Shown: piece by piece, positions 13,015 through 15,351 of the stretch
How the letters are laid out: each line of letters begins with the position of its first letter
Numbering within the stretch: the stretch's first letter is position 1
NCBI GenBank assembly: GCA_903922605.1
Contig: CAIXUG010000016.1
Location: 62,001 to 126,000 of the forward strand
Reading direction: 5' to 3'
From: an uncultured Verrucomicrobiota bacterium
GTDB lineage: Bacteria; Verrucomicrobiota; Verrucomicrobiia; Limisphaerales; UBA9464
Length of the DNA stretch: 64,000 nucleotides
Notes under the pieces: model-generated
Databases searched by the model: none
What the model saw: the letters and a program-made list of their open reading frames with translations, nothing else
Told to the model about the DNA's origin: nothing
Made by a program: the position numbers and the translations under genes

Positions 13015-13340
13015 GTTCGCAGCTTAGGGAGCGATTCCAGGCCTTCTCCACCGAAAATGCGACACGGAATCCGGAAGTTTCGGATTTCGAATTCCCAGTT
13101 TCGAATTTCGAGTGCCAAGCAACGGATTTGGGTCCCGGGTCATGCTCATGCTCCTGCTCATGCTCTCGTTCCCCCCACTACCACTTTAGACTCCATCGTT
13201 GACGTCGCCGGTGCCCGCCCGCAACGTGCACCCGTCTTGTTTGGAAACCGTCATGCCGTCCTTCCTGTAGCCGCCCCGAAATGCGCGGCCATGGTCGTGG
13301 CCGCATGGCCGGTCATGAAATCGAAGTGGGCTAATCACGC
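13015..13340. other. Non-coding gap with short-period repeats
   Basis: This part of the ada-EamA gap has no credible gene. 13072-13112 is a run of TTTCGAATTTCGA-like words and 13141-13165 a run of CATGCTC words (4 tandem variants), the short-period sequences also seen in other gaps. 13166-13340 shows nothing I can name. Confidence 0.5.
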
Positions 13341-13430
13341 CCCGATCGGCGGCAGTTTCCGAGGATGACCCATTAACGAACCCAACCTCGTCACGGAACC
13401 CGCCGCAAATCGCACCGGCGGGTTTTCTGT
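13341..13430 (+). promoter_or_regulatory. Candidate attenuator/riboswitch-like leader of the EamA transporter
   Basis: A terminator hairpin AACCCGCCG (13397-13405) / CGGCGGGTT (13416-13424), followed by TTTTCTGTTT, lies 67 nt before the transporter start. The left terminator arm can pair instead with upstream sequence: CGGCGG (13347-13352) with CCGCCG (13400-13405) and TTCCG (13357-13361) with CGGAA (13394-13398), enclosing a further AGG/CCT pairing (13362-13364 / 13386-13388). The two folds exclude each other. That is the layout of a transcriptional riboswitch or attenuator. I do not recognise a known aptamer class. Pairings seen directly; function inferred. Confidence 0.55.
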
Positions 13431-13496: not shown

Positions 13497-14429
13497 ATGA
13501 AGCCTGAGACAAGTCCCGACCATCCCCCATCCCGCACGCTGGTGCTGGTCGCCTTTGCGATCGTGTATGTCGTGTGGGGCTCGACCTACCTGGCCATCCG
13601 GGTCGGCGTCGAAACGCTGCCGCCCTTCCTCATGGCCGGCGTGCGTTTCCTGATCGCCGGCGGGTTGCTGTATGCCGGGCTGCGGTTTCGCGGGGTCGCC
13701 GCGCCCAAACCCATCCACTGGCGCAACTCGGCCATCGTGGGAACACTGCTGCTGCTCGGCGGCAACGGCCTGGTCGTCTGGGCGGAGCAGACGGTCGCTT
13801 CCGGCATAGCCGCCCTTGTCATCTGCCTCTCGCCCGTGTGGTTCGCGCTGTTTGACTGGTGGCGGCCCGGCGGCCGGCGGCCGGTCGCGGCCACCTGGCT
13901 GGGCATCTTCATCGGATTCTGCGGCGTCGCCCTGCTCGTCGGCGGACGCCGGGGCAACTTCGCCGGTTCCAGCGTCACCGTTTCGGGACTGGTCGCCCTC
14001 ATCATCGCCTGCGCCTCGTGGGCGGCCGGCTCGGTCTTCAGCAAGTACAACGCGAAGCCCGAATCGCCGTTCATTGGCGCGGCGATGCAGATGCTCTGCG
14101 GCGGGGTTTCGCTCTGCCTGGTCGCGGGCACGCAGGGGGAATTCGCCCGCTTTCACTGGTCGCAGGTCTCGACGGCGTCGCTGTTCGCGTTCTGCTACCT
14201 CATCGTTTTCGGCTCGTGGATCGGCTTCAGCGCCTACATTTACCTGCTCAAGGTCAGCAGCCCCGCCAAGGTCTCGACGTATGCCTACGTCAACCCCGTG
14301 ATCGCGGTGCTGCTGGGATGGCTGATGCTGGGTGAGCCGGTCACCAGCCGTGTGCTGTGGGCCTCCCTCATCATCATCGCGGGCGTGGCCATCATCACGC
14401 TCCCGAAACCCGCGCCAGCGAAGGCTTGA
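13497..14429 (+). CDS. EamA/DMT-family transporter (YedA-like exporter)
   Basis: A 310-residue inner-membrane transporter with ten predicted hydrophobic segments and two EamA halves. The N-terminus 'AFAIVYVVWGSTYLAIRVGVETLPPFLMAG' and the C-terminal 'SPAKVSTYAYVNPVIAVLLGWLMLGEP' are typical of the YedA-type drug/metabolite exporter subgroup. Substrates of relatives are amino acids or other small metabolites. The gene is preceded by a structured leader with a terminator, so expression is likely regulated by attenuation. The ppk2-family gene starts 40 nt downstream. Confidence 0.9.
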   Translation: MKPETSPDHPPSRTLVLVAFAIVYVVWGSTYLAIRVGVETLPPFLMAGVRFLIAGGLLYAGLRFRGVAAPKPIHWRNSAIVGTLLLLGGNGLVVWAEQTVASGIAALVICLSPVWFALFDWWRPGGRRPVAATWLGIFIGFCGVALLVGGRRGNFAGSSVTVSGLVALIIACASWAAGSVFSKYNAKPESPFIGAAMQMLCGGVSLCLVAGTQGEFARFHWSQVSTASLFAFCYLIVFGSWIGFSAYIYLLKVSSPAKVSTYAYVNPVIAVLLGWLMLGEPVTSRVLWASLIIIAGVAIITLPKPAPAKA

Positions 14430-14469: not shown

Positions 14470-15351
14470 ATGAACTTCGTCAAAAAGCTGCGCGCGCAGG
14501 GGAAACATTTCCGCCTCGAAGACCACGACCCGAAATACCACGGCGACCTGAGCCGCGAGACCGCCGAAGAACTGCGCCCCCGGCAGCTGCTCGACCTGCA
14601 GGAGCTGCAGGACCGCCTGTATGCCGCCAACAGCGAGTCGGTGCTCATGATCCTGCAGGGCATGGATGCCTCCGGCAAAGATGGCGTCATCAAGCACGTC
14701 ATGAGCGGGGTCAATCCCGCCGGCTGCGATATCCATTCTTTCAAGGCCCCGAGCACCCTGGAGCTGGGCCATGACTACCTGTGGCGCTGCCACCAGCAGG
14801 CGCCGGAACGCGGGCGCATCGGCATTTTCAACCGTTCCCATTACGAGGAGGTGCTGGTCGTGCGTGTGCATCCGGAAATCCTCCAGAAGCAGCACCTGCC
14901 GCCCAAATCGCTGAAGCAGCCTGAAATCTGGAAACGCCGCTACCACGAGATCCGCGACTTCGAGCGCCAGCTCCACGACAACGGCACCCGCATCGTGAAA
15001 TGCTTCCTCCACATGTCTCCGGAGGAGCAGCTGGACCGTTTCCTGCAGCGCATTGACGACCCGGCGAAGAACTGGAAGTTCGAGACCGGTGATGTGGTGG
15101 AGCGCGAGTTCTGGCACCGGTATCAGGAAGCCTTTGAGGAGATGATCCGCCACACGAGCACCGACGAGGCCCCGTGGTACATCATCCCGGCGGACCGGAA
15201 GTGGTTCACCCGCGTGGCGGTTGGCGCCGTCCTGCTGGAGACGCTGAAGGAAATTGATCCGCAATATCCCAAGGGCACGGACGAGCACCGGCAGGAACTG
15301 AAGAAGATCCGCAAACGCCTGTTGGCCGGTGGCAAACATCCGAAAGGATGA
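14470..15351 (+). CDS. Polyphosphate kinase 2 family protein
   Basis: A 293-residue PPK2-type enzyme, which transfers phosphate between inorganic polyphosphate and nucleotides. The P-loop is 'GMDASGKDG' (residues ~64-72), followed by the family's 'FNRSHYEEVLVVRVHPE' (Walker B/lid region with Asp/Glu-Arg) and the lid-like 'FEEMIRHTSTDEAPWYIIPADRKWF'. The length and the 'KYHGDLSRETAEEL' N-terminus match the PPK2 subgroup annotated as polyphosphate:nucleotide (AMP/ADP) phosphotransferase. The ATG at 14470 was chosen by family N-terminus; the frame stays open upstream inside the EamA gene. No signal peptide, so cytoplasmic. Confidence 0.93.
   Translation: MNFVKKLRAQGKHFRLEDHDPKYHGDLSRETAEELRPRQLLDLQELQDRLYAANSESVLMILQGMDASGKDGVIKHVMSGVNPAGCDIHSFKAPSTLELGHDYLWRCHQQAPERGRIGIFNRSHYEEVLVVRVHPEILQKQHLPPKSLKQPEIWKRRYHEIRDFERQLHDNGTRIVKCFLHMSPEEQLDRFLQRIDDPAKNWKFETGDVVEREFWHRYQEAFEEMIRHTSTDEAPWYIIPADRKWFTRVAVGAVLLETLKEIDPQYPKGTDEHRQELKKIRKRLLAGGKHPKG

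What the first reader, a model, noticed from the sequence alone, without database searches (positions are those of the whole stretch)
13341..13430. Riboswitch-like leader upstream of the EamA transporter
Left terminator arm 13397-13405 can pair with 13416-13424 (terminator) or with 13347-13352 and 13357-13361 (antiterminator enclosing a hairpin). The two are mutually exclusive, and the terminator has a T-rich end 67 nt before the start codon. I know no matching aptamer class. If real, the ligand is likely to be what the transporter exports.
Basis: partly seen in the sequence, partly recalled or inferred. Interest (0 to 1): 0.62.

Follow-up and report, generated by a model that had tools for sequence, protein, structure and literature searches.

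The report
Likely tryptophan-codon attenuator before exporter gene
The suspected riboswitch is better explained as a translation-sensing switch: a tiny peptide gene with tryptophan codons lies upstream of an exporter gene, and a ribosome slowing on those codons would let the exporter be transcribed, an arrangement known from amino-acid-making genes but seen here in front of export pumps.

Summary
The same unit precedes 42 of 54 orthologous EamA (YedA-type) exporters with upstream sequence in 320 genomes of the order, and the two arms fit each other better within a leader than after exchange (0 of 20,000). It does not look like an aptamer riboswitch: no Rfam family reaches its gathering score there, and the antiterminator's 5' arm is the end of a short ORF (13237-13368, TTG start, 43 codons). 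All 39 distinct leaders have a Trp codon in that ORF, a median 22 nt before the arm (38 measured), and the stop lies a median 21 nt after the arm begins. That is the geometry of ribosome-mediated attenuation: slow at Trp, antiterminate; reach the stop, terminate. The own genome has similar leaders on leuA and ilvB; relatives have Trp-type leaders on MATE exporters, but none was accepted on 30 trpE loci. The natural trigger (uncharged tRNA-Trp, a toxin causing it, or general translation inhibition) and the exported substance are unknown; nothing was tested at the bench.

The parts
13199..13227 (+). Likely promoter: TTGACG, 17 nt, CAACGT (the -10 is weak, 2 of 6)
   Evidence: TTGAC upstream of the short ORF in 25 of 39 leaders (6.2% of shuffled windows); five of the 14 misses (L136, L139, L141, L142, L143) had been cut short and show TTGAC in the longer stretch. 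In the 25, the start codon lies a median 10 nt after the -10. The near relative L003 keeps TTGACG-17-CAACGT although its surroundings differ (35 of 49 identical). The general scanner found no promoter here.
13237..13368 (+). Leader-peptide ORF, TTG start, 43 codons, stop TGA 13366-13368
   Evidence: Start codon inferred from its place in relatives (41-codon ATG form in L004) and from the point where L002/L003 become nearly identical (190 of 191, the one change synonymous). An ATG at 13291 in the same frame is a shorter alternative.
13306..13308 (+). Trp codon 1 of the leader peptide (aligned with the column that is Trp in 39 of 39)
13327..13329 (+). Trp codon 2, 20 nt before the antiterminator arm
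13347..13361 (+). Antiterminator 5' arm (region 2: 13347-13352 and 13357-13361), inside the leader ORF
13394..13405 (+). Shared arm (region 3): antiterminator 3' arm and, from 13397, terminator 5' arm
13416..13424 (+). Terminator 3' arm (region 4), followed by the T-rich tail
   Evidence: hairpin alone -14.9 kcal/mol
13497..14429 (+). EamA-family exporter, YedA type (controlled gene)
   Evidence: PF00892 E 9.6e-37; NF008432 YedA 274.2 bits against cut-off 270
14470..15351 (+). PPK2 polyphosphate kinase, 40 nt after EamA; possibly co-transcribed (not shown)

Best explanation
It is a ribosome-mediated transcription attenuator. Transcription starts a few bases before the leader ORF, and a ribosome follows the polymerase. 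If it moves freely to the stop codon (13366) it covers the 3' end of the ORF, so 13347-13361 cannot pair, the terminator 13397-13424 forms and the exporter is not transcribed. If it is slow or stalled at the Trp codons (13306, 13327), 13347-13361 is free when 13394-13405 is made, the antiterminator forms first and transcription runs into the EamA gene. Shown by comparison: the ORF with a conserved Trp codon, the two alternative structures whose arms fit within each leader, and the spacing. Inferred: promoter activity, translation, termination, response to Trp codons. Unknown: whether the natural trigger is low charged tRNA-Trp, an inhibitor of its charging, or general translation inhibition, and what the exporter carries.
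For: 42 of 54 orthologous upstream regions hold the leader. In 32 of 32 leaders with only one candidate reading frame a Trp codon lies at -100..-52 from the terminator; over the 39 distinct leaders own frame 39 of 39, other two frames 22 of 78. Last Trp codon to antiterminator arm median 22 nt (range 7-51, n 38); arm start to stop median 21 nt (range 9-52, n 38). Own arms pair at -16.6 kcal/mol against -13.8 exchanged, 0 of 20,000. With a ribosome masked at the stop almost no upstream structure is left to compete (-0.6 against -20.4 kcal/mol with the ribosome at Trp; partly true by construction). Internal controls in the same genome: leaders of the same layout on leuA (7 Leu of 23 residues) and ilvB (5 Val, 2 Leu, 6 Ala of 24). 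L002/L003: leader 190 of 191, spacer 72 of 72, EamA 910 of 930.
Against: 16 of 39 leaders have a single Trp codon, while starvation sensors usually have several (recalled). At equilibrium the terminator is the more stable state in 37 of 38 leaders even with the ribosome at Trp, so the antiterminator must win by forming first. No region 1:2 pairing as in E. coli trp was found. In the exchange test the own window ranks first for only 3 of 39 arms, within the best ten for 27 and last for one; L005 (z +1.24) and L017 (z -0.32) do not support the helix. The leaders are related by descent, so the 20,000 exchanges are not independent trials. L008 and L121 have a terminator but no leader ORF like the others, L009's stop codon lies beyond the terminator's 5' arm, and the MATE leader L167/L202 has no Trp codon before the arm. 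Turning exporters on when Trp is scarce has no obvious purpose.
Confidence: 0.82

Rival explanations
1. Same machinery, other trigger (antibiotic-type leader): any slowing of translation by drugs that hit the ribosome frees the antiterminator and turns the exporter on, as reported for bmrB-bmrCD of Bacillus subtilis. Trp is merely a slow or convenient codon.
For: The genes behind the Trp-type leaders that could be identified are EamA and MATE exporters; the MATE piece passes the cut-off of the MATE efflux subfamily model (177.7 against 147.4), though the NorM models are far under theirs. In 30 of 38 leaders the untranslated RNA folds into the antiterminator, so loss of translation would switch it on. 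bmrCD is a published efflux pump under ribosome-mediated attenuation (PMC4191407, abstract and passages).
Against: A generic slow-down sensor does not need the same amino acid in 39 of 39 EamA leaders and in 5 of 6 MATE-only leaders.
Confidence: 0.35
2. Same machinery, other trigger (arrest peptide that senses free tryptophan, TnaC-like): excess Trp stalls the ribosome near the conserved Trp codon and turns on an exporter of aromatic compounds.
For: One Trp column, an exporter behind it; the EamA protein has weak similarity to the aromatic amino acid exporter YddG model (36.9 bits, cut-off 300).
Against: The peptides are otherwise very divergent, the distance from Trp to the stop varies and all three stop codons occur; TnaC (recalled) needs fixed distances. 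The protein scores as YedA, not YddG.
Confidence: 0.1
3. Metabolite-binding riboswitch of a new class.
Against: No family at gathering score in the leader; at E<=10 the best match has 17.7 bits against a gathering score of 80. In the 39-leader alignment the invariant and nearly invariant columns lie in the shared arms and the T tail. The conserved element is a Trp-containing ORF.
Confidence: 0.04
4. A free-standing small protein or small RNA gene with its own 3' terminator that happens to precede the exporter.
For: Promoter, ORF and terminator form a complete unit.
Against: The unit stays with EamA or MATE in many families of the order, the terminator arm also pairs with the ORF end, and peptide sequence is poorly conserved apart from Trp.
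Confidence: 0.04

Closest known systems
Classical amino-acid attenuators (E. coli trpL, leuL, ilv leaders)
   Same: Leader ORF with codons for one amino acid, antiterminator and terminator sharing a strand, stop codon placed so that a finishing ribosome blocks the antiterminator.
   Different: Controls exporters, not biosynthesis; a single Trp codon in 16 of 39; nearly no 5' UTR before the leader ORF; no support for a 1:2 helix. Details of the E. coli leaders are recalled.
bmrB-bmrCD attenuator of Bacillus subtilis (PMC4191407, abstract and passages)
   Same: Ribosome-mediated attenuation in front of an efflux transporter; a leader peptide whose translation matters.
   Different: ABC transporter, induced by ribosome-targeting antibiotics, terminator inside the leader ORF, no single conserved amino acid in the passages read; preventing translation lowered expression there, whereas the folds here predict the opposite.
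trpRS1 leader of Streptomyces coelicolor (recalled; the paper itself was not among the listings)
   Same: Trp-codon leader in front of a resistance gene (indolmycin-resistant Trp-tRNA synthetase).
   Different: Controls a synthetase, not an exporter; different phylum.
leuA and ilvB leaders of this genome (L184, L183)
   Same: Short ORF rich in the relevant amino acids, same order of arms, found by the model built from Trp leaders.
   Different: Biosynthetic genes; several Leu or Val codons in place of one to three Trp.

Membership tests
Ribosome-mediated amino-acid attenuator | Short ORF holding codons of one amino acid upstream of the terminator | tested here: met
   Trp codon in own frame in 39 of 39 distinct leaders, other frames 22 of 78
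Ribosome-mediated amino-acid attenuator | Antiterminator and terminator that share an arm, kept by compensating changes | tested here: met
   Exchange test 0 of 20,000 (relatedness not removed). In 10 aligned leaders of one clade 2 antiterminator pairs change on both sides (82 of 500 shuffles reach this) and 3 terminator pairs (3 of 500)
Ribosome-mediated amino-acid attenuator | Spacing that exposes the arm at the sensing codon and covers it at the stop | tested here: met
   Medians 22 and 21 nt, n 38; exceptions L112, L015, L017 (7-9 nt from Trp to arm) and L009 (stop 52 nt after the arm begins)
Ribosome-mediated amino-acid attenuator | Run of sensing codons | tested here: inconclusive
   One Trp codon in 16, two in 17, three in 6 of 39 leaders
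Ribosome-mediated amino-acid attenuator | Protector (1:2) helix | tested here: not met
   own pairing not better than exchanged (9426 of 10000 as good). Not required in all attenuators (recalled)
Ribosome-mediated amino-acid attenuator | Read-through rises when the amino acid's tRNA is uncharged | not testable with these tools
   Needs an experiment
Riboswitch (Rfam classes) | Match to a known aptamer class | tested here: not met
T-box | Match to the T-box family | tested here: not met
   No T-box among the hits
YedA-type EamA exporter | Score over the NCBIfam equivalog cut-off | tested here: met
   274.2 against 270 bits, a narrow pass

The most novel reading that the evidence does not exclude
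A Trp-codon attenuator that serves defence: in this bacterial order the supply of charged tRNA-Trp is used as the alarm for a toxin (for example an inhibitor of Trp-tRNA charging, or of translation), and the answer is a dedicated efflux operon (leader, in part of the loci a small protein, EamA and/or MATE exporter). The switch has only two states, so untranslated leader RNA is ON by default.
Probability: 0.3. Interest if true: 0.75.

Novelty: new variant of a known kind. Interest (0 to 1): 0.58.

Why it matters
A 2010 survey knew leader-peptide attenuators from Proteobacteria and Actinobacteria and added Firmicutes (PMC2965389, passages). Here they appear as a working layout in an order that seems to belong to Verrucomicrobia, for leuA and ilvB, and also for export pumps with Trp as the sensing codon. 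It gives a concrete way to find out what these YedA-type and MATE pumps protect against: whatever stalls ribosomes on Trp codons should switch them on.

Tried and rejected
Riboswitch or other known RNA: Rfam at gathering score gave only two tRNAs in the window; at E<=10 ten low-scoring matches far under their gathering scores.

Chance structure: the 90-nt stretch alone is not significant, so I turned to relatives instead of arguing from energy.

Trp biosynthesis link: trpE of this genome and 30 trpE loci including it (of 52 matches) show no leader that I accept. 6 of 30 have a terminator-like hairpin; L225 has a weak one 7 nt from the gene with a two-Trp ORF ending at -24, which I judged unrelated.

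Consensus folding of the 39-leader MAFFT alignment found only the terminator (7 pairs), because MAFFT does not line up the antiterminator arm; hence the exchange test. Alignments A3 and A5 were made and not used further.

Rows dropped: of 55 EamA matches in 54 genomes, one has no upstream sequence (L144); of the other 54, eight have no terminator found (L124, L125, L126, L128, L130, L140, L146, L147), and I set four aside by hand (L129, L131 unrelated hairpins; L008 and L121 terminator without a leader ORF like the rest, although an ORF with one Trp can be read in L121). Terminators of L006, L120 and L145 were set by hand. L003, L113 and L114 were dropped as near duplicates, leaving 39. In 9 of 42 leaders two frames were candidates and I chose the one with Trp and the usual start position; in L142 no start codon lay within the stretch cut by my script (an ATG is visible). 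Antiterminator arms of seven leaders were fixed by hand, and L127 was left without one.

Energy test: I expected the antiterminator to be the more stable state with the ribosome at Trp; it was in only 1 of 38.

Pause hairpin: the RNA around the last Trp codon folds better than its base-shuffled copies (mean z -1.12 over 38), but its arms do not fit better within than between leaders (4038 of 10000 as good), so I make no claim for a 1:2-like hairpin.

One search used another rule than (16 against 3 of 80); both are quoted.

Only 20 of the loci found by model R1 in 197 of 320 genomes were examined for their downstream gene: 6 MATE, 12 leuA, 1 EamA, 1 without an exporter (L166). Of the leuA genes only two (L172 and the own L184) were run against profiles, the others were named by their likeness to these. 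Of the 13 MATE loci with a leader, six share the EamA operon with sequences from which the model was built and so match by construction; L204 and the six MATE-only loci do not.

No solved structure was found with the EamA alignment at E<=0.001.

Full report
Observation. By itself the 90-nt stretch folds no better than its shuffles, and no Rfam family reaches its gathering score there. The case therefore rests on relatives.

Relatives. A search of 320 genomes of the order with the EamA protein gave 55 matches in 54 genomes. Upstream sequence exists for 54 of them; 42 hold the same kind of unit: a short ORF, in most a TTGAC promoter before it, and a terminator before the exporter gene. Near duplicates removed, 39 leaders remain. 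A terminator-like hairpin over one fixed threshold is present in 44 of 54 of these regions, but in 3 of 80 regions upstream of EamA homologues from named genomes (the 80 best of 592) and in 6 of 30 trpE regions; under a looser rule 16 of the 80 had one. One of the named records (L034, titled Verrucomicrobia) shows the same hairpin and preceding coding sequence as L129 of this order; this is my only support for the phylum.

The short ORF. In the window it is TTG 13237 to TGA 13366-13368, 43 codons, with Trp codons at 13306 and 13327. In the 39 leaders the peptides are 28-52 residues and share little but one Trp column (39 of 39; Ala before it in 24, and a Pro column further upstream in 31). Frame choice does not make this result: in 32 of 42 leaders only one frame qualifies and all 32 have a Trp codon at -100..-52; over the 39 the other two frames have one in 22 of 78. 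Comparing the window with its nearest relative (L003), the promoter region is 35 of 49 identical, but from just before the start codon to the terminator 190 of 191 positions agree, the one change being synonymous; the spacer is 72 of 72 and the EamA gene 910 of 930. In the 25 of 39 leaders where my script saw TTGAC, the start codon lies a median 10 nt after the -10 box, so the leader ORF would have almost no 5' untranslated region.

The two structures. The antiterminator's 5' arm is the end of the leader ORF. For each leader I computed the pairing of its own arm window with its own terminator arm: mean -16.6 kcal/mol, against -13.8 when windows are exchanged among leaders; none of 20,000 exchanges was as good. 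The own window is the best of 39 for 3 arms, within the best ten for 27 and the worst for one; L005 and L017 do not beat shuffles of their own window. Leaders of one clade share ancestry, so this is fewer than 39 independent cases. In an alignment of ten leaders from one clade the antiterminator keeps 92.2% and the terminator 97.3% of cells paired, with changes on both sides at 2 and 3 pairs (reached in 82 and 3 of 500 shuffles).

Geometry. From the last Trp codon to the arm is a median 22 nt (range 7-51, n 38), and from the start of the arm to the stop codon 21 nt (range 9-52). A ribosome on the Trp codon leaves the arm free; one at the stop covers it. With the RNA behind such a ribosome masked, the upstream RNA can form -20.4 kcal/mol of structure in the first case and -0.6 in the second (means). 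The finished terminator is the more stable form in 37 of 38 leaders even in the first case, so the antiterminator must act by forming earlier. In 30 of 38 untranslated leaders the arm pairs with the terminator arm, and there is no sign of a protector helix. The switch thus predicts ON without translation.

Other uses of the same layout. A model built from ten of the leaders finds, in this very genome, leaders on leuA (peptide VIRILSLRLIALALLLSRATVGA, 7 Leu of 23) and on ilvB (MQFGAQLVVVLVAGGDAAAGTVGA) (gene identity). Its score for these is modest (24.1 and 27.9 bits), and the pattern search for the EamA-type arms found only the EamA leader and one other place, matched twice. Over the order, 20 of the loci found were inspected: twelve leuA with Leu-rich peptides (L174 cut by the contig end), six MATE exporters with leaders of the same layout, one EamA, one without an exporter. 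Of 29 MATE homologues found at E<=1e-50, 13 have a leader upstream and 16 have none that the model detects; in seven of the 13 the order is leader, EamA, MATE, and in six leader, MATE (coordinates). Five of the six MATE-only leaders have a Trp codon before the arm; L167/L202 has none. In five EamA and three MATE loci a 59-73 residue protein sits between leader and exporter; the three that were run have no Pfam match. No leader of this layout was accepted on any of 30 trpE loci.

Mechanism and naming. This fits ribosome-mediated transcription attenuation, with the ribosome as sensor and Trp codons as the slow spot. It works like the classical trp attenuator but sits on export genes. The closest published efflux case known to me is bmrB-bmrCD (PMC4191407; abstract and passages read). 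A survey of premature terminators (PMC2965389, passages) states that leader-peptide systems had been shown only in Proteobacteria and Actinobacteria (the ermC leader apart), and adds Firmicutes; its main text does not hold the words EamA or Verrucomicrobi-. My searches for a Trp leader on EamA or MATE, or for leader-peptide attenuation in Verrucomicrobia, found no paper (open-access library only).

Open points. Which condition slows the ribosome, what the exporters carry and whether PPK2 (14470) is co-transcribed are unknown. The sense of the response, exporters on when Trp decoding is slow, suggests protection from a toxin more than amino-acid export, but this is inference.

Noticed in passing
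L184 (G000:C64:18096-18173, minus): Leucine-rich leader peptide and attenuator-like layout in front of leuA in the window's own genome; the same type precedes leuA in the 12 loci of relatives inspected (one cut by the contig end).
   Followed up: partly
L183 (G000:C25:2337-2414, minus): Val/Leu/Ala-rich leader peptide and attenuator-like layout in front of an acetolactate synthase large subunit gene (ilvB) in the own genome.
   Followed up: partly
L136, L139, L141, L142, L143 (before EamA); L165, L168, L169 (before MATE): A small 59-73 residue protein (invariant Y-R, G, A, A, D in eight aligned) lies between the leader and either exporter, suggesting a module; the three run against Pfam had no match.
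   Followed up: partly
L167/L202: MATE leader with the same layout but no Trp codon before the arm and four Cys codons; possibly a change of sensing codon.
   Followed up: no
L166: Trp-type leader followed by a short ORF and a gene on the other strand, without an exporter.
   Followed up: no
window 14470-15351: PPK2 polyphosphate kinase gene 40 nt after EamA; coding sequence of the same kind seems to follow EamA in L003, L004 and L007 (seen by eye).
   Followed up: no
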